Assembly: GCF_000015665.1 (NCBI RefSeq)
Contig: NC_008817.1
Coordinates: 372,001 to 436,000 of the forward strand
Length of the DNA: 64,000 nt
DNA from: Prochlorococcus marinus str. MIT 9515
Lineage (GTDB): Bacteria; Cyanobacteriota; Cyanobacteriia; PCC-6307; Cyanobiaceae
Direction of reading: 5' to 3'
Within the stretch, counting starts at the first letter, position 1. Each line of letters starts with the position of its first letter. The notes under the pieces were generated by a model. The model was not told the DNA's origin and made no database searches. It worked only from the letters and a program-made list of their open reading frames with translations. Shown piece by piece: positions 15,408-28,462 of the stretch. The position numbers were made by a program, and so were the translations under genes.

Positions 15408-16190
15408 ATGAAAATCATTAAGAAACTCAGGTCGCTACCGAGCGATTCTCTGAGCGTTATTCGCCGCACCCCGCCACTTGTTTTCGCAATGGCTGTACTT
15501 TCTCTCGGAGGATTTATAGGCGCCTCTACTGTCCTTGTGAAAGGGTTCAGAACAGTTGAGAATACTATCACTGTAACTGGTGCAAGCACAGAGAGTTTTG
15601 AGAGTGACATAGCAAAATGGTCAGTCCAGGTAAAGACCTCAGGTAAAACTCAGATTGACTCATTTACTAAACATAAACAGTCCATTAAAAAGACAATGGA
15701 ATTCCTAAAAGCCAATGGAATTGAGGACAGCGTAAAGCAGGATGTTTATCTTGGGCCTGCAAGTATTAGTGAATATACAACCAAGCATCCGAAGACTAAT
15801 GAAATCATTAGAACTGAATGGATTACTTATCAGAATATTGAGATTGAAAGTAGGGATGTTTATAACATCCAGAAGACTCATAGTCAGATAACAGAATTGC
15901 TTGGAAAAGGTGTGAGAGTTAAGCCAAGCCGTCCTGAATTTACTTATTCCAAGCTTGCTGATAAACGCGTTGATATGCTTGCAAAGGCTGCAAAGGATGC
16001 GAGAGTCAGGGCTGAAGCTATCGCTCTTCAGGCGGGCTCTGAAGTGGGTGGATTAAAGAGGGTTAATACTGGAGTTTTTCAGATAACAGTTCCTAATTCC
16101 ACGAGGGTAAGCAGCTGGGGTTCTTATGATACTTCAACAATAAAGAAAGACATCACTGCCGTTATGGGAGTGACTTTCGCGGTTAAGTGA
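15408..16190 (+). CDS. SIMPL-domain (DUF541) membrane-anchored protein
   Basis: A 260-aa protein with a basic cytosolic start, one membrane helix at about residues 24-45 (PLVFAMAVLSLGGFIGASTVL), and a SIMPL/DUF541 domain: ENTITVTGASTESFESDIAKWSVQV, TEWITYQNIEIESRD, LADKRVDMLAKAAKDARVRAEAIALQAG, and a final VTFAVK strand. Family members are periplasmic/extracytoplasmic oligomers of unknown role, some linked to oxidative stress. The coding sequence is visibly richer in G+C than its neighbours, especially near the 5' end, which suggests acquisition. It stands alone. Confidence 0.75.
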   Translation: MKIIKKLRSLPSDSLSVIRRTPPLVFAMAVLSLGGFIGASTVLVKGFRTVENTITVTGASTESFESDIAKWSVQVKTSGKTQIDSFTKHKQSIKKTMEFLKANGIEDSVKQDVYLGPASISEYTTKHPKTNEIIRTEWITYQNIEIESRDVYNIQKTHSQITELLGKGVRVKPSRPEFTYSKLADKRVDMLAKAAKDARVRAEAIALQAGSEVGGLKRVNTGVFQITVPNSTRVSSWGSYDTSTIKKDITAVMGVTFAVK

Positions 16191-16794: not shown

Positions 16795-17220
16795 ATGAGT
16801 AGTGAAGTAATACATAAGGTAAGTGAGCAGAGATCAAGGAATATGTCTGCCATTAAATCTAAAAATACAAAGCCTGAAATCGCGGTAAGAAAACTTTTAC
16901 ATTCAATGGGATATAGATTCAGATTACATAGAAAAGATTTACCAGGTTCTCCTGATATTGTTCTGCCAAAATATAAAACAGCAATTTTTGTACATGGATG
17001 TTTTTGGCATAGGCATGCGAATTGTAAGTATGCATCAACTCCAAAAACAAGAAAAGAATTTTGGGAAAATAAATTTAGAGCAAATGTAAAAAGAGATTTG
17101 GAAATTCAGGAAAAAATAAAAATTATGGGTTGGAAATCTGTCGTTATTTGGGAATGCGAAATTAAAAATAAATCTATCTTTGAAAAGAATTTTAATAATC
17201 TTTTTTTAGATGATTTTTAA
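16795..17220 (+). CDS. vsr: Vsr-type very-short-patch endonuclease
   Basis: A 141-aa endonuclease closely matching Vsr. It carries RSRNMSAIKSKNTKPE (13-28), the catalytic Asp54 in GSPDIVLPKY, then TAIFVHGCFWHRH (63-74; active-site and zinc ligands), an FW...N-x-x-RD helix (89-101), and GWKSVVIWECE (112-122) with a zinc cysteine. Classical Vsr nicks 5' of the T in T:G mismatches left by deamination of 5-methylcytosine. Vsr-like nucleases in methylase/ATPase islands are thought to cut DNA. It is complete in length, is the only plus-strand gene of the island, and overlaps the end of the convergent gene by 4 bp. Confidence 0.9.
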   Translation: MSSEVIHKVSEQRSRNMSAIKSKNTKPEIAVRKLLHSMGYRFRLHRKDLPGSPDIVLPKYKTAIFVHGCFWHRHANCKYASTPKTRKEFWENKFRANVKRDLEIQEKIKIMGWKSVVIWECEIKNKSIFEKNFNNLFLDDF

Positions 17221-18023
17221 ATAGTATCATTTTCAATCTTTTTATTTGGGATATATTTTTGTAAATTTAGAATTCTCTCCAGTAGGTTTTCTGGACTCTC
17301 TTTATGAGCGCTAACTGATCTAGGTATAAGTAATGCATTAAATAAAACTGATAATTTTGCTGAAGCAATGGTAGGAGCTAAACCTCTTTGATCAACTAGT
17401 ATACTAAATGCTTCTAAGTAGCAAATTCTAAATAATGGAGAGCCCCCAAACTCTCTGTCGAGAACATCAAAAAGTGCTTGTGATTTTTTATTTTCTGTGA
17501 TTATCTTGGTATATTTATATGGGTCTTCACATCTAAAACATTCTAATTCAGAATCCTTTTCCCAAGGTGCATAAGTAAGTTCAGCAGCCCACCATAATCT
17601 TGATAAACCATTCCTTGCCAATGCATTTCTTGGTGATCCATCTAAATGCCATCTTGATAAAATTTTGTTATTCAAATTAGTACCCTTATCTGAATCTTTT
17701 AAGTTCCATCTTTTTTGCATATAGCTCCAAGAGTCTCGATGGGTCAAAGTAATCCATAATCTAGAATCGGAGGCTTGAATCCTATCTATTTTTAATGTTT
17801 CGAAAAGATATTTAGCCGTAATAAAATCATTTGATGAATCTAAAAATTTTTCTTCAATTGGTTTTAATTGAGTATCGAAAAATTCATATTGTTCTAATTC
17901 ATTTAAAAAAGGATTTGAATAAGAACTATATTTTTGAATATTTTCATTAGCAAGATTTGCATCGCTGGCTTTTCCAGTTAATAAACTTACAGAAGATCTA
18001 GTTAGTAATTTTAAATTATTCAT
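17217..18023 (-). CDS. island module A, small protein (DUF6339-like)
   Basis: A 268-aa protein, third gene of module A. Conserved features shared with its counterpart at 23843-24556 are a D-x-R-h-W-h-x-L segment (about 86-93), a tract RW-x(7-9) leading to ARNGLSRLWWAAE (136-148), and LDREFG (188-193). I recall such sequences as DUF6339, but the label is unverified. The invariant Arg, Asp and Glu are compatible with an enzyme or nucleic-acid-binding role, but none is known. It overlaps the upstream partner gene by 4 bp and converges with vsr, so it is firmly part of the island operon. Coding sequence is AT-rich like the host. Confidence 0.7.
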   Translation of the reverse strand: MNNLKLLTRSSVSLLTGKASDANLANENIQKYSSYSNPFLNELEQYEFFDTQLKPIEEKFLDSSNDFITAKYLFETLKIDRIQASDSRLWITLTHRDSWSYMQKRWNLKDSDKGTNLNNKILSRWHLDGSPRNALARNGLSRLWWAAELTYAPWEKDSELECFRCEDPYKYTKIITENKKSQALFDVLDREFGGSPLFRICYLEAFSILVDQRGLAPTIASAKLSVLFNALLIPRSVSAHKESPENLLERILNLQKYIPNKKIENDTI

Positions 18024-18943
18024 TCGCCCAATATTTCATCATCAATTTGTGATTGATGTTCTTCGTACTTGCTTTTTATTAAACTAATTAATGGAGATTT
18101 AAGAATTTTATTTGCTTTTTCAAAAGGGGTACCCTGTAAGTTATTTTCATCTATTAATTCGCAAAGATTATTAAACCAACCTTTGTTTACATATGAAGCA
18201 TATTCTATCTGAGCATTAAGCTCAGCTTCACTCAATTTTTCTTCTGCAGATTTTAAAATTTCTATATAGTGAATAGCCATTTGAAGCGCTGGCAAAACAA
18301 TATTATTGTAAATAAATGGTCCTAAAGATTTTCTTTTTATCGACTGGTATTGTTTAAAAGTATCTTCAGGTAACTTAATTAATATTTTTTCTTGAGTAAA
18401 GTCATGAATAGGCTCTTTTATTGTCTTATTCGTATTTGGCGTAATTAAGAAAATACTTTCTGGTTCTGCCTCAAATGGGTCGAAGCGATGTGGAATATTT
18501 TCAAATTTACTTTTGCTTTTACCGAGAATATTTAATTCTTTTGCTATGAAGTTTCTCTTTGGATAATCATTTGCCAATAATGTTGGTGCTACATCTAATT
18601 CTTTAATTGAAGATAGGAAAAATCTAACTCTAACCCGATTATTTAATACTCCATAATCAAAAGTTATTTCCTCTTTATTTTTATTATTGAAATCTAGTTC
18701 TTTGCAGATGAGGCTAAAAGTCGCAGGGCTATTTAGCTCTACGAAAAAACTTAATTGGCCTTCATCAAACAAATTTTGTATTTTTGTATCAGATATAGAA
18801 GGCTTATAAAATCTAAAAATTATTTTCTTTGGAAACTTTTCAACAGCATAATCAATATCCATTTTTGCAGTTGATTGATAATCACCTTCATTACCAATTA
18901 CTGGACATGGATATGAGATTTGTTTGGATGTTGAGCTAGGCAT
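18020..18943 (-). CDS. island module A, middle partner protein
   Basis: A 307-aa protein of unknown family. The first half is beta-rich (KIIFRFYKPS, LSFFVELNSPATFS, VRVRFFLSS). The middle has FDPFEAEPESIFLITPNT, and the last third is helical with FIYNNIVLPALQMAIHYIEILKS and a charged C-terminus. Gene 24553-25584 has the same order of elements (FPSESRDQLWRLIPSE, then a helical region with a similar FTSICSTVWTMLVATAMNSI), so the two look like distant homologues. Start and stop overlap the ATPase and the DUF6339-like gene (TAATG and 4 bp), indicating co-translation. A structural or adaptor role for the ATPase is a guess. Confidence 0.6.
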   Translation of the reverse strand: MPSSTSKQISYPCPVIGNEGDYQSTAKMDIDYAVEKFPKKIIFRFYKPSISDTKIQNLFDEGQLSFFVELNSPATFSLICKELDFNNKNKEEITFDYGVLNNRVRVRFFLSSIKELDVAPTLLANDYPKRNFIAKELNILGKSKSKFENIPHRFDPFEAEPESIFLITPNTNKTIKEPIHDFTQEKILIKLPEDTFKQYQSIKRKSLGPFIYNNIVLPALQMAIHYIEILKSAEEKLSEAELNAQIEYASYVNKGWFNNLCELIDENNLQGTPFEKANKILKSPLISLIKSKYEEHQSQIDDEILGE

Positions 18944-20997
18944 TAGATGGTGGAAATTGCGAATTCAGCAGAATTTGGGAGTACAATCTCGCAGTCATAA
19001 AATTCATTAGTCTGCATCTTAATATCTTTAATTTTATTTTCATGCCATTGAATTTCTTTTCTATTAAATGAAATTTTCGACTCTACGGGTAAGGGCACGC
19101 AGCTCTTTTTTTCATTATTTACAACCATTCCTAAATTGATATCTCCATGTATATCTTGTAATGCAATTATTCTTAAAAGATATCTATTTTCGGTTGAAGA
19201 ATTTCTTAGTAATCTTATTTTTATATCTTCATTAATAGTTAAAGATTCTTTCTTACCTTTTGGATCAAATTTAGCATTTCCTTGTTTATCTCCAGCACCG
19301 CTTCCTGGATTGCCACCTTGAGGGTTAACTTTTTTGTCAGTTTTTACTGTGCCTACAGTCCCGCCTGAGGTCCCTTGACTGCTTGCAGTTCTTTTAGTTG
19401 ATATTGAGGAAGAATTTTTTTGAATGCTTGTAATAGTCGATTTATTGCTATCAGTAATTATTGAGGGATTGAATCCTTCCTTATTATTTGTATTCGGAAT
19501 GCCTTCTTGAGAAGAGAAAAATGAACCATCTCCTATCCCAGTTCTAAGATCAGGGATTAAATCTGCCAGGCCTGGTATATCTTGCGTTTGACTAGATAAA
19601 GGATCAAGATTTTCTATTATAATTTGAACTTTTTTACTTAAATCTTGATAAATACTCCAATATTCATTTACATATTCTTCATCACAATAATCTCTTACTA
19701 ATTTGAGATGAGTTGGATCCTCTAAATCCATAAAAACATCATTACCTTTATCAGATAAGACTTTTACAACTGCATTAAAAGGAATACCTATTGGTTTACT
19801 GAAATTTCTTATTTTCATAAGAGGTTGTCTCATTATGCACCATTCTTTCGTTAACTTTTGATCATCCTTATCTTGATATAAGGTCATTTCAACCTTTCCT
19901 ATTTTTTTAACATCAATCAGATGAGTTGATCTTTTGCCTGTTATGGAAATTGAATGCTCGTTACACGTTGTTTTTAGAAATCCATAAATAGATTGCATTT
20001 CTTTGTTCCATGCCTTGCTTGATAGTCTCTTTTTAACTTGGACTTCCAAAGTAGAATAATATTCGTCTAAATTTTCATGATTTATTTCATGAAGAATTTC
20101 ATTTGTATTATCGTTTATTATTTTGAAATTAATTAATTTTTCTCTTATTGCAGCAAAGAATCCTTTAATTAATCCCTTAGCCAATAAAAGATCCCAGTTA
20201 TCAGATTCATGTTTAAAACCCCAAATATAGATATCAGTTCCATTAGTAGATCTTTCATAAGGAAAGTTAATATTTAAAAGATCATTATTTCTATAAGAGA
20301 CAAATTTATTCGGGTTAATGACGTTACCTATAAATCCTGTTTCTTGAGTCTTATAGTTTTGGGTTGGATCAATGTGTGAACATAAGATTGAGTTGCCTGC
20401 AAATAAAGTTTCCTTTTCTTCGTATTCGTTAGTAAATTGAGAAAATAATGTATAAGCTTTTATATCAGATTTGGCAACTAAAGCATTTTGTCCATGACCA
20501 AAGCGTCCAGCTTTTGTACCTTGAGCAGCACTTATACCAGTTGACTTGATAAGACGAAAATATGGAGCAAAGTCTTCATCTTCTCCCCCTTTGAGGCCCT
20601 TAGTTCCATAATCTCTTATTGTTAAAACAGGAATTGTATCTTGATTTAGTATTCTCAAAGCTCTTGATAATTGTATTATTTCTTTGCCAATAGGTTTGTT
20701 TGATCCTGAAGAAGCTTCTTTATTTTGAAAATATTCAATTGCAGATTCTAATCTTTTTTTGTAGTCTTCAATTCCAGGGAAAAATCTACTTTCTATATTT
20801 TTTAATCGATATTCAACTGATACCTCAACATCTTCACCATTATCATCTTTCATACAGGAGTTTCTTGAATTTTGTGCTGTCTCAAGCCCAACGTTATCCA
20901 AGTGCTTAAATATGTCACTTGCATTATTCAGGCCTTTTTCCTTGCCATAGCCAAGGCTTGGAAAATTCCAGGGGTTGGAGTAATTAAAAATACTCAT
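18943..20997 (-). CDS. island module A, GHKL-type ATPase
   Basis: A 684-aa protein with an N-terminal histidine-kinase/Hsp90/MutL-like ATP-binding fold: N-box helix LETAQNSRNS (Asn43, Mg binding), G1 box IRDYGTKGLKG (Asp129, Gly131, Gly134), and G2 lid AGRFGHGQNAL (163-173). The opening, PSLGYGKEKGLNNASDIF, matches the other island ATPase (PSLGQGRSSGGNAASEIF). A low-complexity Ser/Thr/Gly linker (about 520-590) separates a final beta-rich domain. There is no kinase dimerisation helix or Hsp90 middle domain, so a MutL/MORC-like nucleotide-driven clamp is the best reading. First large gene of module A, overlapping the partner gene by 1 bp. Confidence 0.75.
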   Translation of the reverse strand: MSIFNYSNPWNFPSLGYGKEKGLNNASDIFKHLDNVGLETAQNSRNSCMKDDNGEDVEVSVEYRLKNIESRFFPGIEDYKKRLESAIEYFQNKEASSGSNKPIGKEIIQLSRALRILNQDTIPVLTIRDYGTKGLKGGEDEDFAPYFRLIKSTGISAAQGTKAGRFGHGQNALVAKSDIKAYTLFSQFTNEYEEKETLFAGNSILCSHIDPTQNYKTQETGFIGNVINPNKFVSYRNNDLLNINFPYERSTNGTDIYIWGFKHESDNWDLLLAKGLIKGFFAAIREKLINFKIINDNTNEILHEINHENLDEYYSTLEVQVKKRLSSKAWNKEMQSIYGFLKTTCNEHSISITGKRSTHLIDVKKIGKVEMTLYQDKDDQKLTKEWCIMRQPLMKIRNFSKPIGIPFNAVVKVLSDKGNDVFMDLEDPTHLKLVRDYCDEEYVNEYWSIYQDLSKKVQIIIENLDPLSSQTQDIPGLADLIPDLRTGIGDGSFFSSQEGIPNTNNKEGFNPSIITDSNKSTITSIQKNSSSISTKRTASSQGTSGGTVGTVKTDKKVNPQGGNPGSGAGDKQGNAKFDPKGKKESLTINEDIKIRLLRNSSTENRYLLRIIALQDIHGDINLGMVVNNEKKSCVPLPVESKISFNRKEIQWHENKIKDIKMQTNEFYDCEIVLPNSAEFAISTI

Positions 20998-21225
20998 TTA
21001 TAAAAGTTTGAATGAAGAATCGTTGTTAGTACCGGAATCAAATTTTCTACAGATCTCGTTAACTTTATCTTTAAGAGCTTTTTTAATTTGTTGCGATTGT
21101 TGCTCTGTGTAGGAATAGTTGCTTTTGTTTGCAAGATTTCCAACTAGGTCTAAATATTTGAGAGCTTTTGGAACTCTCTTATTAGCCAATTCAATAAAGT
21201 GTTCAGAGTTATTTTTTGTAGCCAA
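20998..21225 (-). CDS. small helical island protein, paralogue 2
   Basis: A 75-aa helical protein with no known motif. It is similar to the gene just upstream (21288-21593): FIELANKRVPKALKYLDLVGNLAN matches FCRLANSRVEKVAYALDILSKLSS, followed in both by an (S/D)YTE motif and an IKKAL/IKKFL helix. It directly abuts module A (its stop is followed by the ATPase start). It could be a regulator, antitoxin-like factor or assembly partner. The sequence does not decide. Confidence 0.6.
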   Translation of the reverse strand: MATKNNSEHFIELANKRVPKALKYLDLVGNLANKSNYSYTEQQSQQIKKALKDKVNEICRKFDSGTNNDSSFKLL

Positions 21226-21287
21226 TTACTTTTCCTGTTTATGAGAATCTAATTATTGCATTAAAAATTAAATGAAATATATGAGAT

Positions 21288-21593
21288 TTAGGCTTTCAAA
21301 ACAAAAGTCTTTTTTCCCGTTTCATTTGCAGGGGTAAAAGCTGCAAGTGCTTTATCAAGTTCAGATTGAAGGAATTTTTTGATATTTTTAATATCTTCCT
21401 CTGTGTAGTCTGACCTTCTTGATGAAAGTTTTGAGAGGATATCCAGAGCATAGGCGACTTTTTCTACGCGGCTGTTGGCCAATCTACAGAAAATATCTCT
21501 TCTGGATTCGACCGAATTTAAGTCTTGAGCAATAGATTTAGAAGTCATAATTGAAAAATAGAATGAATAAATGAGAGTAAATCTGGTGCTCAC
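21288..21593 (-). CDS. small helical island protein, paralogue 1
   Basis: A 101-aa frame, although the conserved part begins only at about MTSKSIAQDLNSVESRRD. An ATG there (about 21548) would give an 86-aa protein and is my preferred start because the preceding residues (TRFTLIYSFYFSI) look non-coding. The core RLANSRVEKVAYALDILSKL...YTEEDIKNIKKFL is shared with the neighbour at 20998-21225. First gene of the second island operon, preceded by a 183-bp control region with palindromes and the shared 17-bp motif. Confidence 0.6.
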   Translation of the reverse strand: MSTRFTLIYSFYFSIMTSKSIAQDLNSVESRRDIFCRLANSRVEKVAYALDILSKLSSRRSDYTEEDIKNIKKFLQSELDKALAAFTPANETGKKTFVLKA

Positions 21594-21695
21594 TCAGGAA
21601 AAACCAATAAAACCTGCCCTGCTTTACCCCATATCAAGGGTGCTATAGCTCTCAAACTACGTACAGAAGTCATCAGGACACCAGATAAACTTACT

Positions 21696-21712
21696 ATGTA
21701 CTATATATAGGT
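21696..21712 (+). promoter_or_regulatory. shared 17-bp island motif, copy in mid-island control region
   Basis: ATGTACTATATATAGGT, two mismatches from the copy at 16732-16748. It is about 100 bp upstream of the first gene of the module A operon. A GCTATAGC palindrome and a CTACGTACAG repeat of the ACGTAC core lie between it and the gene. Confidence 0.4.
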
Positions 21713-21743
21713 CAATTATATTTGTCAAGAAATTCATTTAGAG

Positions 21744-21764
21744 CGTACATATGTAATATGTACG
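21744..21764. repeat. 9-bp perfect inverted repeat after dcm
   Basis: CGTACATAT-GTA-ATATGTACG, perfect 9-bp arms, 13 bp beyond the methyltransferase stop. It lacks a T-tail, so it is more like a protein-binding site than a terminator. The GTAC half-sites recall the ACGTAC core of the neighbouring motif. Confidence 0.55.
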
Positions 21765-21776
21765 GGCAGTAAATTA

Positions 21777-23846
21777 TCAGGCAGCTTCTATCTTTTGCTC
21801 TTTTGGTAATAATTTTAATTTATTCTGGATAATTTCATCTGTATCTTCTTGTTTAGATAAAGCCAGTAAGGAGCAATAACCAGTACCTTCACTGTCTTTC
21901 TCTAATAAATGACCTATATGTATCTCTCTGTTCATGTTGCTGAATTTCAATTTCTCATAATCTAAATCCATCAACTTAGAAATAATTTTTGTTATTACTA
22001 AGGATTGTTTTATCTCAGTGGTCAGACCAACTGTTGCAAGAGCTCCTCTTACTGAATTCCTAGAAAATAAACCATAATCTTTTCTGGCTATTTCACTCCA
22101 GTCAATTTCATCTTTGTTTAAATCTTCAGCTAAGAGTTCTAGGGAAGGAATATATTTTTCAAGACTGAAACTTTTTATTTTCATCGTCCGCATTTTTATA
22201 TTGTCATGAAGAAAACTTTCGGGATTAGGCCAGGACTTTTTCAGCTGTCTATATGTTTCCTTTTTTCTACCTTCCAGGTTTTTATCACTTTCTCCTACAT
22301 TTTTTTTCTTTTTATCCTTATGATCCTTTTTGAAGGTTTCTGGGAGTAAGATTCCAAGGCATGCATTCCATGCTCTTACTTCATTTGGAATAATTTTTCT
22401 ACCTTCTCTTTTTTTTGTCCAGATAAGTTCAACTTCTTTTTTATTTAATTCATACCAGCTAATAAGATTTTTTCGTAGTTGAGGAACTAAATCTGCCTGC
22501 ATATAATCTTTTTTATTTTTTATCGATTTAATTAATGCTTTTCCTAGTTCATAAGCAACTATGGGTGCAACTGCTTCTCCAATTTGATGGAATCTATTAG
22601 AAGGTCCTCCATGAAAATTAAACCCATCCGGAAATGATTGAACTCTTGCTGCTTCTCTGACTGAGAGTGTTCTATTTTGTTGGGGATGGATATACCAGTA
22701 TCCATCTTTTGACATATGAGCAGTGATTGTGAGACATGGTTCATTTGGTTTGAGAATATTATATTTATCACCAAAGCTATTCTTTTGATTTTCCTTTACT
22801 TTCTTGCCTTCCCTAAAAGCTCTGCTGGTTACTGAATATCTCCTTTGAGCTTCTGATAGTTGAGAATATTTAACTCCAGTGGATCTCATTAATTTAAATG
22901 TTTCTAGATCATCCTCTCTAACTTTTCTTATCAGGTGATCATGAATTACGTCATCATCAATTTCTAACCATTCTCTCATAGATGTTTGATAAGGGGTTAT
23001 GGGGCCTCCATAGCTATATCTCTCATCCCACTTCTCGTTCCATCCTCCCTCCAAAGGAGGTAAATCAGAAATCGCATCTTCCAATGTAACTGCTTTATCA
23101 ACGGAATTGTATGTTGGCTTTGGCCATTTCATTGGAGCACATTCATTTATCTTTGTTCCTGAAATAAATAATCTTGGTCTGAGTTGAGGGACTCCATACT
23201 GCCATGCATAAATCAATTTGGGGTCTATACGATAACCGGCTTTCTCAGCTCTATTAATTATTGATCTGAATATTTCCTGCTCTCCACCCTGGGCAATATC
23301 AGAAACATTTTCCATTAGAAAAGCTTTTGGCTTTACCTGCTCAACTATCGAAATAAATGATTCCCATAATTCTCTTCTATCTTCATTAAGTTCCTGATGT
23401 TGAGCCGAAACTTCTTCATTATGTTTCCTCCATTTGATATTTCTCGAAAAAGGCTGACATGGAGGCCCACCTGCAATAAGTGAAATTTCTCCACATTCGT
23501 TAAGTTTGTCAGCAATTTCATTAACAACCTTTCTTTTACTTAAATCACATTCATACGAGCAACCGCCAAAATGATGCCTGTGAGTCATTATTGAATCATT
23601 TCGAATATCACATGCAAGAATTACATCAAAATTTGCTCGATGAAGCCCAAGACTTAAACCACCAGCACCTGAAAAAAGATCAACAGCAAAGTTTGGGTCT
23701 TTTTTAAGACTACGAACTTTTGCCGCATAACCAGGAAGTTCATCAAATTCGCATGAATCAATATGAGGATCAAGTTCTGTTGAAGGACCTCTGACAGGAG
23801 TTAATCTATGTGGATCAATTTTTCCTACTGCATTCTTATGTATCAT
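21777..23846 (-). CDS. C5-cytosine DNA methyltransferase with long C-terminal extension
   Basis: A 689-aa Dcm-type enzyme. Motif I FSGAGGLSLG (58-67), motif IV GGPPCQPF with catalytic Cys130, motif VI ENV (179-181), motif VIII VPQLRPRLF (about 218-226), and IX-X with LSVREAARVQSFPD and QIGEAVAP are all intact, so it should methylate cytosine in a short site using SAM. The catalytic core ends near residue 440. About 240 further residues, basic and unfamiliar to me, make it longer than typical Dcm proteins. It is the last gene of the module B operon, overlapping the DUF6339-like gene by 4 bp, which ties the methylase to the ATPase module. Confidence 0.9.
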   Translation of the reverse strand: MIHKNAVGKIDPHRLTPVRGPSTELDPHIDSCEFDELPGYAAKVRSLKKDPNFAVDLFSGAGGLSLGLHRANFDVILACDIRNDSIMTHRHHFGGCSYECDLSKRKVVNEIADKLNECGEISLIAGGPPCQPFSRNIKWRKHNEEVSAQHQELNEDRRELWESFISIVEQVKPKAFLMENVSDIAQGGEQEIFRSIINRAEKAGYRIDPKLIYAWQYGVPQLRPRLFISGTKINECAPMKWPKPTYNSVDKAVTLEDAISDLPPLEGGWNEKWDERYSYGGPITPYQTSMREWLEIDDDVIHDHLIRKVREDDLETFKLMRSTGVKYSQLSEAQRRYSVTSRAFREGKKVKENQKNSFGDKYNILKPNEPCLTITAHMSKDGYWYIHPQQNRTLSVREAARVQSFPDGFNFHGGPSNRFHQIGEAVAPIVAYELGKALIKSIKNKKDYMQADLVPQLRKNLISWYELNKKEVELIWTKKREGRKIIPNEVRAWNACLGILLPETFKKDHKDKKKKNVGESDKNLEGRKKETYRQLKKSWPNPESFLHDNIKMRTMKIKSFSLEKYIPSLELLAEDLNKDEIDWSEIARKDYGLFSRNSVRGALATVGLTTEIKQSLVITKIISKLMDLDYEKLKFSNMNREIHIGHLLEKDSEGTGYCSLLALSKQEDTDEIIQNKLKLLPKEQKIEAA

Positions 23847-24556
23847 GAAGCCTCCTTATCCTGAATATCAATTAATTTTTGCAGTTGTTCTTCACTCAAT
23901 AGATCAAGACATATAGAGCCACCCAGAGAATTAAGTTTTCTTATCGCAATTCTTACTTTGCTGTCTGGCAATTCAACAAGCTTTTCTGTTAATACTCTAT
24001 TTATCTTGGGTATCAAGCCAAATTCTCTGTCACTTAAACCGAGATGAAGTTCCTGACTCGTGAAAAGTTTTTTGACCAGAGTGTAGTCAGATTGACTTTT
24101 ATCCATCATCCTATCTGCGGCAAAGAAAAGTCTGGAAAAGGTATTTCTCCCATGACCATTAATTGAAGATGTCCCAAGAAATCTTATAGAAGGAACATGT
24201 TTTTTGCCTGTTCCAACCGTAAATCCATCTTCAGGGTCAATAGGAATACTCCCTCTCCATCTAAGCCAGGGAATGTTTGGATATTTTATTACGCAAAGCC
24301 AATGCCACATTCTCATATCAGTAAGAACATGAGAAGGAAGCGGTTTAAATGTTTTATGAACGCACTCGACCAATCTCTCATCCAGGTTTGAACCTTTTAT
24401 ATTTTCAAGGATTAGTTGATCTACAAGTTTTGAGAGGTCAGTAAGATCTACTTCGGATTCTACTTTCTCTAAACCTATAGACTCTGGATATCTTAAAGCT
24501 GAAATAAGTCCACTATTTATTAAAGGATTCTTTAATCTGAAAAGCTCTTCTCTCAT
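23843..24556 (-). CDS. island module B, small protein (DUF6339-like)
   Basis: A 237-aa protein, counterpart of 17217-18023. Shared signatures are MRMWHWLCVIKYPNIPWLRW (81-100), SINGHGRNTFSRLFFAAD (131-148) and LSDREFG (174-180). Sequence elsewhere is poorly conserved, so the two copies diverged long ago or came from different sources. It overlaps the partner gene upstream and the methyltransferase downstream by 4 bp each, giving tight translational coupling. Function unknown. The invariant Arg/Asp/Glu might form an active site. Confidence 0.7.
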   Translation of the reverse strand: MREELFRLKNPLINSGLISALRYPESIGLEKVESEVDLTDLSKLVDQLILENIKGSNLDERLVECVHKTFKPLPSHVLTDMRMWHWLCVIKYPNIPWLRWRGSIPIDPEDGFTVGTGKKHVPSIRFLGTSSINGHGRNTFSRLFFAADRMMDKSQSDYTLVKKLFTSQELHLGLSDREFGLIPKINRVLTEKLVELPDSKVRIAIRKLNSLGGSICLDLLSEEQLQKLIDIQDKEAS

Positions 24557-25584
24557 GCGACCTCCTCTTTCTTAGGCATCTTTGAACTCTCTGATTCAAA
24601 ACTACAACCTCTTGCCATTATTTCTGCTAATTCCATTATCTTTGTTTCCTGTTGAATTATTGAACTCATTTTTAGAATCAAATTTTGAAACGATTCAGGA
24701 GATCTAAGCTCATTAGCAAGTGCAATAACGGCTTCGTTCGGAGAAATATTTGTTTCAAGGAGACTGTTAGAGAATAATGAGAGTGTCTGAAGTTGGGATT
24801 GTGGGAGCTGTTCAATAACTTCTTCGCTGCTAAGTTCTCTGTTTGTATTGAGAATATTTTGAATGGAGTTCATTGCAGTTGCGACTAGCATTGTCCAAAC
24901 AGTGGAACAGATTGATGTGAAAATAACATCTCTCTGTAAACAGTTGGTATCTTTTCTTAGAGATTTGCTCATCAAGAGCTTTTTAAGAGAAGCTGTTACA
25001 TCCTCATTCATTTCAATCACTGGAGGTTCACTTGGGATTAATCTCCATAATTGATCGCGACTCTCAGACGGAAATGATTGCCACCTTATATCAAAAATTG
25101 ACTCATTACTGATTTCAGCGTTTGCAAAACGAATTGTATGGATAAGACTTCTTCCTATTATCTGCCCCATCTCTGAAGCGTACCCACTTTTTGAGTCTGA
25201 ACCTTTAAACTTTTCAGTCCTTACAAGAAGAGCTTCTGCTCTTATTTCCTCTCCATTCATAAATGGAATGTAGGAAATTTCGGAGAAGAAAAATCCACCC
25301 CCACCATCTTCCAAGTCTATGGTTTCTCTTCTTCCAGTTGAGCGACTTATTAAACGACAGATAAATTTAACAGGTGGATTCTCCCTCTCTGATGGATGAA
25401 TTGTTTCTTCCCATTCATACGGAGCTGTAAGAAGTATTTCCAGTTTTGTCTTCTCAAGTTTGCCGTTGAACTTGAAGATAATACCATTGCTGACTTCTTG
25501 AATCACCTCTTCAGAAATACTCTCAGGAGCAGTGATTCTAAATGCTCCATCAAGATCGATTGTTCTCCAGGGGACGAAATGCAT
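24553..25584 (-). CDS. island module B, middle partner protein
   Basis: A 343-aa protein of unknown family. Order of elements: beta-rich first third (GIIFKFNGKLEKTKLEILLTAP), a Gly-rich LEDGGGGFFFSE, FDIRWQSFPSESRDQLWRLIPSE near 168-190, and a helical C-terminal half (ICSTVWTMLVATAMNSIQNILN and a Leu-rich LSLFSNSLLE). It resembles 18020-18943 in length, position and the F.pF/FPSES...LIP region. It starts 2 bp after the ATPase stop and overlaps the DUF6339-like gene by 4 bp. Confidence 0.6.
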   Translation of the reverse strand: MHFVPWRTIDLDGAFRITAPESISEEVIQEVSNGIIFKFNGKLEKTKLEILLTAPYEWEETIHPSERENPPVKFICRLISRSTGRRETIDLEDGGGGFFFSEISYIPFMNGEEIRAEALLVRTEKFKGSDSKSGYASEMGQIIGRSLIHTIRFANAEISNESIFDIRWQSFPSESRDQLWRLIPSEPPVIEMNEDVTASLKKLLMSKSLRKDTNCLQRDVIFTSICSTVWTMLVATAMNSIQNILNTNRELSSEEVIEQLPQSQLQTLSLFSNSLLETNISPNEAVIALANELRSPESFQNLILKMSSIIQQETKIMELAEIMARGCSFESESSKMPKKEEVA

Positions 25585-25586
25585 AA

Positions 25587-27551
25587 CTAACCTACTTTCC
25601 TGAATCCAGCAATTTCAGGGTTCACTCCTATTGGAGGTTTGACTGTGCATTCAAAAGGAACTGATGAGAATTGATTTTCCGCAGAGAATACAAATCTTTT
25701 TGAATCTGAGTCATCTAGAGAAATATGTTTTTCACTTCCTAAAATCTGCATATCACTTATCCCCCACATTTCCCCCTGTCCACTGTCTGCGATGCTTTGA
25801 AAAGATAAATGAACTTTTGCAGATCTTTTTGAATCCCCTGATCTCACTAATTCTCCAGTTATTCTCCAGCCATTAGTTTTCTTGTTGAAGAAGGATCTCT
25901 GCCTGTCTATTACAACTTCAAGAGAAGAATTTCTAGCCTTTGACTGAATCTTCTTTTGCTTCATTCCTCTCCCTAGATTAAGCATTCTTCTAAGCATCTC
26001 AGGCCCTTCATCAGGACGAGAAACGAATGAGGTCAAAAGGTTTTGAATAAGTATTTGTCTGAGTTCGTATCGTATTCCTCTGAGTCTGTTTGCATGACCT
26101 TTCCAGGTATAGCTCTCCCTAAGTCTTCTGGTTGTTGGCAACCAGTCATCATGGGTGACAGGTTCACCAGCTCGGAAATATTCTTCAGCAAATAGAGCAT
26201 TCTCTTTATTCAATTCAGTTTTTTCAGATTCAGCAATTTCATTCAATGATGTACCGACAAATGCAGCAGCGCAGTAGGAACCCCCATCATTTAATCTTGT
26301 CCCTTCGGCATAATCGACAACCATTCCCGAACCCCTTATAAGGGCGATTGTTGAACGGCAAGGTAAACTTTCCTCCTTGGATGAGACTCTTGTAACTCCA
26401 AGTCTGACAAAGCTTTTAAGCTCATCATGAAGAAGTTCTGGGTTGTCTGAGGGCTCGACTCTTGCAGGTATTGGAAACTCAATGTCTATTGAGGAACTAT
26501 CCCCGGGGAATAATGATTTTGTATTTTCGAAAGGCTCAACTCTTCCACATTCAACAAATGAAGACCATATCCCATTAGCCGCAGCCTCAGATACAAACTC
26601 AGCCGATTTACCCTCTTCACGAAAAACCCTTGCTTTGAAATCAAGCCTTTTCCAGCTGATTGCCGGCCAGAACCATTTCGATGCAGCTTCTGTGAAATCT
26701 CTGCAGAGTTCTTCAGGCTCTCTTATCCCTGATGAACCTGTATCATCACGATCCGGTTCATGAAAAGTTGGGATGAGAATAGTTGTTCCGCATTCGGTTT
26801 CATTGTCACGATTAAGGAGAATTTTTTCTGCATCTCCATCTTTCAGCCATGTTGATTCTGCTACAGGTATTCCATCTTTCTTAATTTCAGAACCCATATA
26901 GGCTCCATCAAGCCAGGACTTGCCATTCATTTCATGAGCTGGAAGTTCACTTCTCCCAAAGATTCTCAGATCCTTTTCCCCTTCAATTCTGGAAGAGAAA
27001 AGAACAGTGAATATTCTGGAATGCATCCAACTGACTGCTTTCCCAAGACCAAAACTGCCCCCTAACCCTGACTCTTTCCCAGTTGAGAAATTCTGTACAC
27101 AGAGCTTTCGGAAATTTCCTTTCTCATCCCAGTCATCACCAGTAAGGCCGTCAGTACCATAATCACTGATTCTCAGACAGACGAGGTCTGAGGATTTCAT
27201 CGATTCCAATCCTGCTTTCAGAGTAAGAGCAGTTCCACTGGAACCTTTCACTGAAGAAAGATGAGGGATAAGAGTTTCACTGTTTATTGATTTCAGAAAT
27301 TCCTCTTTTTTCTCTCCCTTGAGGATTATCAGATCAAAAAATATTTTCACCTTTTTATCCTTTCTCTGATCAAGACTGTTCTGACATATCTCTCTTACCA
27401 GGGTCTCGAGCAGAGAACGTTTTCTCTGAGAAGCACCTGCCTCAAATATCTCACTCGCAGCATTACCCCCACTGGATCTACCCTGACCCAGGGATGGCGT
27501 TCCAATCCATTTAAGTGGTGTCTTAGTTGTGTTCAAGTCTTCTTCAGACAC
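25587..27551 (-). CDS. island module B, GHKL-type ATPase
   Basis: A 654-aa protein beginning at GTG 27551. The N-terminal signature PSLGQGRSSGGNAASEIF (19-36) is shared with the module A ATPase. The GHKL nucleotide site shows N-box REICQNSLDQ (Asn58), G1 ISDYGTDGLTG (Asp130-Tyr-Gly132) and lid GLGGSFGLGKAV (162-173). The middle contains an S5-like region and the C-terminus a beta-rich tail. It lacks kinase or gyrase-specific domains, so a MutL/MORC-like ATPase is the best fit. First gene of the operon ATPase-partner-DUF6339-methyltransferase. G+C is clearly higher here than in module A, which suggests a different recent history. Confidence 0.75.
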   Translation of the reverse strand: MSEEDLNTTKTPLKWIGTPSLGQGRSSGGNAASEIFEAGASQRKRSLLETLVREICQNSLDQRKDKKVKIFFDLIILKGEKKEEFLKSINSETLIPHLSSVKGSSGTALTLKAGLESMKSSDLVCLRISDYGTDGLTGDDWDEKGNFRKLCVQNFSTGKESGLGGSFGLGKAVSWMHSRIFTVLFSSRIEGEKDLRIFGRSELPAHEMNGKSWLDGAYMGSEIKKDGIPVAESTWLKDGDAEKILLNRDNETECGTTILIPTFHEPDRDDTGSSGIREPEELCRDFTEAASKWFWPAISWKRLDFKARVFREEGKSAEFVSEAAANGIWSSFVECGRVEPFENTKSLFPGDSSSIDIEFPIPARVEPSDNPELLHDELKSFVRLGVTRVSSKEESLPCRSTIALIRGSGMVVDYAEGTRLNDGGSYCAAAFVGTSLNEIAESEKTELNKENALFAEEYFRAGEPVTHDDWLPTTRRLRESYTWKGHANRLRGIRYELRQILIQNLLTSFVSRPDEGPEMLRRMLNLGRGMKQKKIQSKARNSSLEVVIDRQRSFFNKKTNGWRITGELVRSGDSKRSAKVHLSFQSIADSGQGEMWGISDMQILGSEKHISLDDSDSKRFVFSAENQFSSVPFECTVKPPIGVNPEIAGFRKVG

Positions 27552-27716: not shown

Positions 27717-28058
27717 TTATATGGAAAGTTGAAAGTGGCTGTAGCTCATGAGCATTTTTATATCTCTGTGACTACTGCATGCACTTATCTCCGTGGCATT
27801 CATTCCGGAACTCCACATTCTGCTTATGGCAATATGCCTTAGATCATGAAATCTGAGAGTTTCAAGTCCCGCTTTTTTTCTGGCTTTATCAAATCCATGC
27901 CTCGCGCTACCTTTTGTAAGATCAATTATTCTTCCTTCCCTTTCCTGTAATTCTTCAATTATCTCTCTGGCTTTATCCGGTAAAGGAACAACTCTCATCT
28001 CAGATGAACTGACTCTGGCGGTACAATTCTTTTGATATATAGTAATTTTTTCTTCAGA
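27717..28058 (-). pseudogene. tyrosine recombinase (integrase) C-terminal remnant
   Basis: Only the C-terminal catalytic part of a phage-type integrase is left. From ATG 27998 it reads MRVVPLPDKAREIIEEL..., then HDLRHIAISRM (the HxLRH box), SSHRD, and SYSHF with the likely nucleophile Tyr. The frame upstream to 28058 (ITIYQKNCTARVSSSE) looks like the preceding part of the domain and is then cut by a stop. The N-terminal core- and arm-binding domains are absent. It lies between the defence island and tRNA-Thr, the usual place for an integrase of a tRNA-targeted island. Confidence 0.7.
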
Positions 28059-28239: not shown

Positions 28240-28297
28240 CTGATGAATTCTTTTTAGCGATAGTGGTAATGCCACTGATACCAAGCTAACCAACGAG

Positions 28298-28369
<72 letters not shown>

Positions 28370-28380
28370 TGAAAATAAAG

Positions 28381-28462
28381 TGGGCCGGGTTGGATTTGAA
28401 CCAACGTAGGCAGAGCCAGCGGATTTACAGTCCGCCCCCTTTAACCACTCGGGCACCGACCC
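28381..28462 (-). tRNA. trnY: tRNA-Tyr (GTA)
   Basis: An 82-nt class II tRNA: acceptor GGGTCGG/CCGGCCC with discriminator A, anticodon stem GCGGA/TCCGC around loop CTGTAAA (anticodon GTA), a long variable arm (TGGCTCTGCC), and a T-arm GGTTCAAATCC. Upstream partner of tRNA-Thr on the same strand. Confidence 0.95.

What the first reader, a model, noticed from the sequence alone, without database searches (positions are those of the whole stretch)
16795..27551. Possible new defence system: two divergent ATPase modules around one Dcm methylase, with Vsr
Seen: genes 18943-20997/18020-18943/17217-18023 (A) and 25587-27551/24553-25584/23843-24556 (B) have the same order and share motifs. Both ATPases open with PSLGxG...NASxIF and have GHKL N-box, DYGT and Gly-lid motifs. 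Both small proteins share an SRL-aromatic-aromatic-AA motif and DREFG. Module B is fused by 4-bp overlaps to a C5-methyltransferase; module A ends against vsr. Known: GHKL ATPases of the MutL/MORC type occur with Dcm methylases and Vsr nucleases in predicted restriction-modification systems, usually with a Z1 helicase. Inference: a methylation-guided two-module anti-phage system without a visible helicase.
Basis: partly seen in the sequence, partly recalled or inferred. Interest (0 to 1): 0.9.

Follow-up and report, generated by a model that had tools for sequence, protein, structure and literature searches.

The report
Methylase-linked twin clamp-ATPase defence island
A Prochlorococcus genome carries a DNA methylase next to two distantly related three-gene ATPase cassettes, an arrangement that recurs in other cyanobacteria and in salt-loving archaea and looks like a methylation-guided virus-defence system whose second half is swapped between strains; its parts were predicted before, but the paired layout and its workings are untested.

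Summary
In detail: the eight genes lie where described (two small genes were missed), and the two triads are homologous member by member. Both ATPases carry GHKL motifs and the ExxxH signature of Iyer's 2008 "paraMORC2" family. Module A is PADLOC's unvalidated candidate PDC-M33; module B is a distant, methylase-coupled relative. The parts are thus known predictions. What I did not find in print is the architecture: a conserved B1-B2-B3-Dcm gene set beside an exchangeable second GHKL module. In 15 of 17 cyanobacterial loci with enough flank the partner is an A/D-type triad, Z1 helicase + DUF4420 + C-type triad, or MORC + Z1 + DUF4420. Haloarchaea also pair two triads with Dcm. A-triad alleles are 29-49% identical between strains, neighbouring Dcm-B genes 82-99%, with sharp cassette edges. 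Only Vsr is a recognised nuclease here. Best reading: a methylation-licensed, R-M-like defence in which ATP-driven clamps act on unmethylated DNA. Joint action of the two modules, and how phage is harmed, are inferences. New variant of a known kind.

The parts
25587..27551 (-). B1, paraMORC2-type GHKL ATPase (654 aa)
   Evidence: PDC-M33A match 2.8e-29, residues 33-265; GHKL motifs and ExxxH; B-type clade
24553..25584 (-). B2, middle protein (343 aa): predicted beta-rich N-terminal half and helical C-terminal half
   Evidence: AlphaFold2 pLDDT 87.9, pTM 0.63; profile match to A2 type 95.4%, E 1.9e-8; no PADLOC hit of its own
23843..24556 (-). B3, DUF6339 protein (237 aa), predicted almost all helical
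   Evidence: Pfam DUF6339 1.2e-17; PDC-M33C 4.7e-12; AlphaFold2 pLDDT 93.0, pTM 0.90
21777..23846 (-). Dcm, C5-cytosine methyltransferase (689 aa) with an unassigned C-terminal extension of about 245 aa; 4-bp overlap with B3
   Evidence: PF00145 6.7e-56, residues 55-440; PPCQP/ENV/QLRPR; the only PF00145 match in this genome
21700..21728 (-). promoter-like site (TTGACA-17-TATAGT, 11 of 12) ahead of s101; a consensus match only
   Evidence: the best-scoring of 26 sites in the region; shuffles give more (mean 40.8), so this is no evidence of function
21288..21593 (-). s101, small protein (101 aa), paralogue of s75
   Evidence: s101-s75 E 3.3e-5 and s101-Arthrobacter small protein E 8.2e-9; own HMM 1.4e-29 (s101 itself is among that model's seeds)
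20998..21225 (-). s75, small protein (75 aa, TTG start) directly upstream of A1; homologues stand upstream of many A-type ATPases
   Evidence: matches the small ORF upstream of the ATPase in Priestia E 4.6e-14 and Arthrobacter E 4.5e-10; the Priestia homologue hits no PADLOC model
18943..20997 (-). A1, paraMORC2-type GHKL ATPase (684 aa) = PDC-M33A
   Evidence: PADLOC 1.7e-62 over 9-678; motifs; A-type clade
18020..18943 (-). A2, middle protein (307 aa) = PDC-M33B
   Evidence: PADLOC 1.4e-23
17217..18023 (-). A3, DUF6339 protein (268 aa) = PDC-M33C
   Evidence: Pfam DUF6339 6.1e-28; PADLOC 1e-27
16795..17220 (+). Vsr mismatch nicking endonuclease, convergent with A3
   Evidence: TIGR00632 1.5e-42; the only Vsr match in this genome
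27717..27998 (-). truncated tyrosine recombinase (93 aa) at the island edge beside tRNA-Thr; 330 aa in relatives such as L019
   Evidence: PF00589 5.4e-12; L019 14516-15508
28297..28462 (-). tRNA-Thr(GGT) and tRNA-Tyr(GTA) at the island border

Best explanation
The island is a methylation-licensed defence system of restriction-modification kind, built from a constant half (B1-B2-B3-Dcm, packed like one operon) and an exchangeable second GHKL module (here A1-A2-A3 with s101/s75), with Vsr as an accessory. Dcm marks the cell's own DNA with 5-methylcytosine; Vsr most likely repairs T:G mismatches left when that 5mC deaminates. Each triad is an ATP-driven GHKL clamp of MORC/MutL type that works with its middle protein and DUF6339 protein. 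The clamps act on DNA that lacks the mark, so invading phage DNA is trapped or cut while host DNA is spared. SHOWN here: gene content, GHKL and ExxxH motifs, homology of the two triads, linkage to C5 methylases, recurrent two-module layout in cyanobacteria and haloarchaea, cassette-like divergence of the second module. INFERRED: that the two modules act together, that methylation is the licence, clamp action on DNA, anti-phage function, and the end effect (trapping versus recruiting a nuclease).
For: Dcm linkage: 44 of 54 triad loci of 15 kb or more carry a C5 methylase against 0 of 20 arbitrary 20-kb cyanobacterial stretches (Fisher 5e-11). B1-B2-B3-Dcm is tightly packed here and has the same order in S. 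elongatus. Two modules: 15 of 17 cyanobacterial loci with that order and enough flank carry a second GHKL module. Haloarchaea pair two triads with Dcm. Overall 16 of 65 loci of 12 kb or more hold Dcm plus a second paraMORC2, and 11 further ones Dcm plus Mza-type genes. A1 and B1 fall in separate deep clades, so the pair is not a local duplication. Cassette pattern: A1/A2/A3 29-37% identical to G041 against 82-87% for Dcm, B1, B2, B3 and 97% for s75/s101, with sharp edges near the A1 start and the vsr 3' end. E, Q, N of the N-box and E..H of ExxxH are kept in 84 of 84 ATPases. In G004, G011 and G023 the same slot holds other Dcm + Vsr sets.
Against: No function was tested. 10 of 65 loci have Dcm with one triad and no second module seen (one of them, L068, is cut off inside Dcm), and 14 of 65 have no Dcm hit. 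L065, a Prochlorococcus locus, has B1-B2-B3-Dcm followed about 200 bp later by vsr with no second module; Stenomitos L077 shows none either. G080 and G085 have one D-type triad with another Dcm and no B triad. A-type triads stand without a B-type triad in the stretches fetched from Priestia, Ligilactobacillus, Paenarthrobacter, Arthrobacter and Deinococcus plasmids. Defence genes cluster anyway, so neighbourhood does not prove joint action. No nuclease fold was recognised in B2 or B3, so a cutting step has no assigned enzyme. A1 has Q at position 170 where 80 of 84 ATPases have K. C- and D-type middle proteins and the D-type third protein match the B/A profiles weakly or not at all.
Confidence: 0.55

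Rival explanations
1. Two independent defences that merely share a hotspot: a Dcm-coupled B-triad R-M system and a stand-alone PDC-M33 system, placed side by side by recombination at a tRNA-linked island.
For: A-type triads occur without a B-type triad in the stretches fetched from Priestia, Ligilactobacillus, Arthrobacter and Deinococcus plasmids; B-type or D-type triads occur alone with Dcm; a 183-bp gap with a promoter-like site separates Dcm from s101; the same slot holds different Dcm + Vsr sets in other strains.
Against: A second GHKL module in 15 of 17 cyanobacterial B-Dcm loci, of three kinds, and two triads with Dcm again in haloarchaea; in the seven such cyanobacterial loci scanned by HMM there is one Dcm hit each, so the second module brings no C5 methylase of its own (L062, L063, L064, L066, L067, L069, L071).
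Confidence: 0.28
2. Methylase-restrained abortive infection: the triads stop replication or kill the cell once unmethylated (phage) DNA appears, instead of cutting DNA. Precedent recalled from memory: lactococcal AbiR, a three-gene operon said to need the LlaKR2I methylase.
For: No nuclease fold recognised in B2/B3; several two-triad haloarchaeal loci show only Dcm plus triads among the families I sought (L086, L090, L091, L093, L094, L096). The title of the AbiR paper (involvement of the LlaKR2I methylase in expression of AbiR) was seen in a reference list.
Against: No AbiR sequence could be obtained, so homology was not tested; a lactococcal triad matched only PDC-M33 models and one weak WYL model in PADLOC.
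Confidence: 0.12
3. Not defence: a MutL/MORC-like DNA maintenance or compaction system responding to 5mC, with Vsr, in genome upkeep.
For: MutL and Vsr act together in very-short-patch repair (recalled knowledge; also stated in PMC2292703).
Against: Patchy presence (PDC-M33A match in 10 of 149 genomes, own included; 10 of 386 across the phylum), island position beside a recombinase and tRNAs, strongly divergent alleles, occurrence on plasmids and beside DISARM-like, Mza-type and restriction genes.
Confidence: 0.05

Closest known systems
PDC-M33 (PADLOC-DB 2.0 phage defence candidate)
   Same: A1, A2, A3 match PDC-M33A, B, C; B1 and B3 match A and C
   Different: PDC-M33 models cover three proteins; here the triad sits beside a B-type triad, a Dcm and Vsr, and has small proteins without a PADLOC hit (s101; Priestia homologue of s75). 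B2 does not match PDC-M33B. Full-text searches for 'PDC-M33' and 'DUF6339' found no paper
paraMORC2 ATPases of R-M neighbourhoods (Iyer, Abhiman, Aravind 2008, PMC2292703; parts 1-2 of 4 of the text read)
   Same: GHKL motifs, ExxxH motif, predicted linkage to DNA methylases, Vsr, a distinct superfamily II helicase and an RE-fold nuclease
   Different: The parts I read do not describe the middle protein, the DUF6339 protein or paired triads (figures and parts 3-4 not seen)
Mza (PADLOC MzaB-D; Gao 2020 recalled) and the putative system of Miller 2022 (PMC9523054, section 11 read)
   Same: Relatives carry MzaC-like Z1 and MzaD-like DUF4420 proteins with Dcm and Vsr; Miller's Type I is Z1 + PD-(D/E)XK protein + C5 methylase + three more genes linked to repair endonucleases, probably the C module here (inference; its figure was not seen)
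   Different: No Z1, DUF4420 or MzaB hit in the window
VcSduA (previously annotated paraMORC3; PMC12137116, passages read)
   Same: A GHKL ATPase of the paraMORC series with shown anti-phage activity; the variant meant to block ATP hydrolysis lost protection
   Different: One protein with a fused Shedu nuclease domain
DISARM
   Same: Triads occur beside helicase, DUF1998 and PLD genes and a C5 methylase in haloarchaea, and beside DrmA/DrmB-like hits in actinobacteria
   Different: No DrmA, DrmB or DrmC hit in the window

Membership tests
PDC-M33 | ATPase, middle and DUF6339 genes matching models A, B and C in order (module A) | tested here: met
   1.7e-62, 1.4e-23, 1e-27
PDC-M33 | the same three matches for module B | tested here: not met
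   A 2.8e-29 (residues 33-265) and C 4.7e-12 match, B2 has no hit; B2 is nevertheless homologous to A2 by profile
paraMORC2 | GHKL ATP-binding motifs | tested here: met
   A1 differs at position 170 (Q for K)
paraMORC2 | conserved ExxxH | tested here: met
   84 of 84 aligned ATPases, A1 and B1 included; that it lies in an S5 domain was not tested
paraMORC2 | S5 fold after the GHKL domain | not tested
Mza | MORC-type MzaB, Z1 MzaC, DUF4420 MzaD | tested here: not met
   no hit in the window with own HMMs; no Z1 in the genome; DUF4420 not found in the genome, but no control rang for that model
DISARM | DrmA helicase, DrmB, DrmC | tested here: not met
   no hit in the window with own HMMs built from 2-3 seeds each
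Type II restriction-modification | C5 methyltransferase with catalytic motifs | tested here: met
Type II restriction-modification | cognate restriction endonuclease | tested here: inconclusive
   no nuclease family hit except Vsr among the ten proteins scanned; B2/B3 gave no confident fold match
AbiR | homology to AbiRa/b/c | not testable with these tools
   no AbiR sequence could be fetched

The most novel reading that the evidence does not exclude
A nuclease-free, methylation-licensed immunity: two different paraMORC2 clamp complexes, one constant and coupled to the methylase, one swapped like an allele between strains, jointly entrap or compact unmethylated phage DNA. This would be a bacterial and archaeal counterpart of MORC-type DNA compaction, with DUF6339 as a helical protein for which I found no confident match among solved structures.
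Probability: 0.17. Interest if true: 0.85.

Novelty: new variant of a known kind. Interest (0 to 1): 0.6.

Why it matters
It gives the 2008 paraMORC2 prediction and the PDC-M33 candidate a concrete, testable architecture: a methylase-coupled constant half plus an exchangeable partner. Eukaryotic MORC silencing proteins have been proposed to derive from such R-M ATPases (PMC2292703), so finding out whether these clamps trap, compact or cut unmethylated DNA bears on where methylation-guided silencing came from. It also accounts for part of the defence variation at one tRNA-linked slot of Prochlorococcus, a dominant ocean phototroph.

Tried and rejected
Local duplication as the origin of the two triads: rejected, since A1 and B1 fall in separate well-supported clades. 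Vsr as the effector nuclease: judged unlikely, because none of the 11 haloarchaeal two-triad loci among L086-L120 has a Vsr hit. HEPN RNase for DUF6339: considered by eye, no conserved RxxxxH motif seen, no formal test. Attachment-site duplicate of the tRNA-Thr/Tyr 3' ends: none found in the window. Phage carriage: one 6.2-kb unannotated record only. Structure searches: B3 had no match with E <= 0.001 in PDB or BFVD, best VIA Z 6.0 to a designed protein; B2 best Foldseek E 1.4e-3, its N-terminal part Ig/FnIII-like with Z up to 8.0 over residues 1-155; all at or below the level the tool calls unspecific. PDB sequence profiles: best E 0.24, 0.14 and 0.65 for ATPase, B3 and B2. AbiR: accession and paper not held; the methylase route showed no Lactococcus row among the 50 listed of 85 records; the text search was swamped by a drug name. 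A first DUF6339 profile comparison was partly circular (two A-type rows in alignment A3) and was repeated clean; those two rows are also in the alignment used to fold B3. A first idea that G374 carries the unit at a different chromosomal place was dropped: its flank genes lie on both sides of it, 32 kb apart.
Full report
Where it is. The window is bases 372001-436000 of a single 1.70-Mb contig. The island lies between a 260-aa conserved gene (15408-16190) and tRNA-Thr/tRNA-Tyr, with aroQ beyond (the name aroQ is mine, from the translation). It ends in a 93-aa remnant of a tyrosine recombinase whose 330-aa form lies at the same place in relatives.

What is there. On the minus strand: B1-B2-B3-Dcm, then, after 183 bp with a promoter-like site (such sites are no rarer in shuffled sequence), s101, s75, A1, A2, A3; vsr converges from the other side. 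B2/B3, B3/Dcm and A2/A3 overlap by 4 bp, A1/A2 by 1 bp, s75/A1 have no gap, B1/B2 a 2-bp gap. Pfam gives DUF6339 for A3 and B3, C5 methylase for Dcm, Vsr for vsr, and nothing above its cut-offs for the ATPases or the middle proteins. PADLOC gives PDC-M33A/B/C for A1/A2/A3, PDC-M33A for B1 (residues 33-265), PDC-M33C for B3 and nothing for B2. The genome has one PF00145 match and one Vsr match, both here. No Z1, DUF4420, MzaB or Drm hit lies in the window and no Z1 in the genome; the genome search for DUF4420 also found none, but no control rang for that model.

Are the triads related? Yes in all three members. The ATPases align over the GHKL motifs. DUF6339 proteins: hhalign 99.6%, E 6e-25, B-only against A-only alignments. 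Middle proteins: 95.4%, E 1.9e-8. They are not a recent duplication: in a tree of 47 ATPases, A-type and D-type rows with Bacillota, Actinomycetota and Deinococcus relatives form one side (16 rows) and B-type, C-type, haloarchaeal and Streptomyces rows the other (31 rows), with support 100/97 for the split. Two rows have long branches and 28 rows an unusual letter make-up, so single placings are less sure.

Family. E, Q, N of the N-box and both E and H of an ExxxH motif are conserved in 84 of 84 ATPases (82 from loci plus A1 and B1). A1 has Q170 where 80 of 84 have K. Iyer et al. 2008 (PMC2292703, parts 1 and 2 of 4 read) named GHKL ATPases with a conserved ExxxH paraMORC2 and placed them in predicted R-M neighbourhoods with helicases, RE-fold nucleases, methylases and Vsr. 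I therefore assign both ATPases to paraMORC2; the S5 fold was not tested.

Neighbourhood across genomes. A scan of genomes of 84,980 species with a B-type ATPase profile found 248 relatives, of which the best 80 were kept as 75 loci, so what follows describes the nearest relatives. With my own HMMs: DUF6339 in 69 of 75, C5 methylase in 52, Vsr in 20, Z1 in 13. Among 54 loci of at least 15 kb, 44 have a C5 methylase, against 0 of 20 arbitrary 20-kb stretches; that control is only cyanobacterial and I picked the positions. Sorted by partner among 65 loci of at least 12 kb: Dcm with a second paraMORC2 16 (9 alone, 3 with Mza-type genes, 4 with DISARM-like genes), Dcm with Mza-type genes 7, Dcm with both Mza-type and DISARM-like genes 4, Dcm with DISARM-like genes 14, Dcm with one triad and no second module 10, no Dcm hit 14; the other 10 of 75 loci were shorter. 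My Drm HMMs rest on two or three seeds each, so 'DISARM-like' is loose.

The two-module layout. Cyanobacterial loci with B1-B2-B3-Dcm order and enough flank: 17 after merging duplicates. The partner is an A/D-type triad in 6 (window, G014, G041, G374, G391, Cyanobium L062), Z1 + DUF4420 + C-type triad in 7 (G021, G040, G304, G476, L067, Cyanobium L063, S. elongatus plasmid pIITB6_1), MORC (MzaB) + Z1 + DUF4420 in 2 (G054, L064), and none in 2 (L065, where vsr follows Dcm after about 200 bp; Stenomitos L077). Left out as cut short or without that order: L061, L068/G072, L070, L072, L073, L074. In 11 haloarchaeal loci (L086, L090, L091, L093, L094, L096, L099, L104, L110, L113, L120) two triads, some broken or cut, stand with Dcm: one Dcm hit in 9, two in L094 and L120; Halomicrobium and Halobacterium DL1 plasmids show the same with Dcm between the triads. 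In Halomicrobium the two ATPases are 40% identical, so the archaeal pairs were probably formed apart from the cyanobacterial ones (inference). Counter-examples: G080 and G085 have one D-type triad with another Dcm and Vsr.

Vsr. In the genus 13 genomes have Vsr and 10 have a PDC-M33A match; 8 have both. The two with a triad but no Vsr, G030 and G072, have contigs that end inside the locus. Of the five with Vsr but no triad, G004, G023 and G043 carry Dcm + MORC + Z1 + DUF4420, and G011 and G081 Dcm with other genes; G004, G011 and G023 are in the same slot, with recombinase and aroQ in the stretch read.

A swapped cassette. Between the window and G041, A1/A2/A3 are 35/29/37% identical as proteins, Dcm, B3, B2 and B1 82-87%, s75 and s101 97%. 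Between G041 and G374 the contrast is 39-49% against 93-99%. Identity per 150-bp step falls sharply at the A1 start and recovers in vsr for G041 and G014; in G374 vsr is itself more divergent. The block 21005-21768 (promoter-like site, s101, s75) is 97% identical in nucleotides to G014 and G041. A DNA search with it over 149 genomes gave 12 with E <= 0.001, but only five strong ones, G000, G014, G041, G080 and G085, all triad islands. So whole modules appear to be exchanged at this slot (inference from these facts).

Small proteins. s75/s101-like ORFs stand upstream of A-type ATPases in Priestia, Arthrobacter, Paenarthrobacter, Deinococcus, G414 and G282 and in Cyanobium L062; none was found in G474, and the Enterococcus triad has an AIPR gene there instead. 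They may be a fourth member of A-type modules.

Structures. B3 folds with high confidence as an almost all-helical protein (pLDDT 93.0) and matches nothing at E <= 0.001 in PDB or BFVD. B2 is a beta-rich half plus a helical half (pLDDT 87.9, pTM 0.63) with only weak Ig/FnIII-like matches. No nuclease appears, but a missing match is not proof of absence.

How it probably works. Dcm marks self (established for such enzymes; inferred here). Vsr tracks 5mC deamination (established for E. coli Vsr, recalled; inferred here; it is accessory, since haloarchaeal two-triad loci show no Vsr hit). GHKL ATPases of the MutL and MORC families close as ATP-driven dimers (recalled; inferred here). Relatives with Z1 and DUF4420 bring a helicase and a predicted nuclease, so there the clamp may hand DNA to a cutter; in the helicase-free form the effector is unknown: trapping, an unrecognised nuclease, or cell arrest. 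Why two modules: the divergence of A alleles next to a conserved Dcm-B half suggests that the partner is under pressure from phage counter-measures while the self-mark stays fixed (inference).

Novelty. Searches for 'PDC-M33' and 'DUF6339' in 5.39 million open papers found none; 'paraMORC' gave seven listings, one plainly spurious. PMC12988326 (passages seen) traces PDC candidates to a guilt-by-embedding preprint, which I could not read. Miller 2022 (PMC9523054, section 11 read) predicted Z1 + PD-(D/E)XK + C5 methylase systems, and its six-gene Type I may be the C module here. Hence: parts known as predictions, paired architecture and swap not found in what I could search, function untested.

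Noticed in passing
21005-21768: Block with promoter-like site, s101 and s75 is 97% identical in nucleotides to G014 and G041, while Dcm on one side runs at 65-91% and the A triad on the other at 32-63% per 150-bp step. Recent homogenisation, a recombination anchor or constraint on the nucleic acid could explain it.
   Followed up: partly
21777-22514 (Dcm residues ~445-689): Dcm has a C-terminal extension of about 245 aa with no Pfam hit; cyanobacterial B-type Dcms are mostly 630-700 aa, haloarchaeal ones about 370 aa.
   Followed up: no
L065 13595-13802: A Prochlorococcus locus in which Dcm is followed after about 200 bp by vsr, as if the second module had been lost or never gained.
   Followed up: partly
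L020 8277-15760 and L174 11014-18214: Z1 helicase + DUF4420 + paraMORC2 + middle + DUF6339-like gene set, possibly the Type I system of Miller 2022 (inference).
   Followed up: partly
27717-28058: Tyrosine recombinase reduced to its C-terminal part in this strain, 330 aa in relatives; no duplicate of the tRNA 3' ends in the window.
   Followed up: partly
L058 5680-10443: Enterococcus plasmid with an AIPR-family gene directly upstream of a very divergent triad.
   Followed up: no
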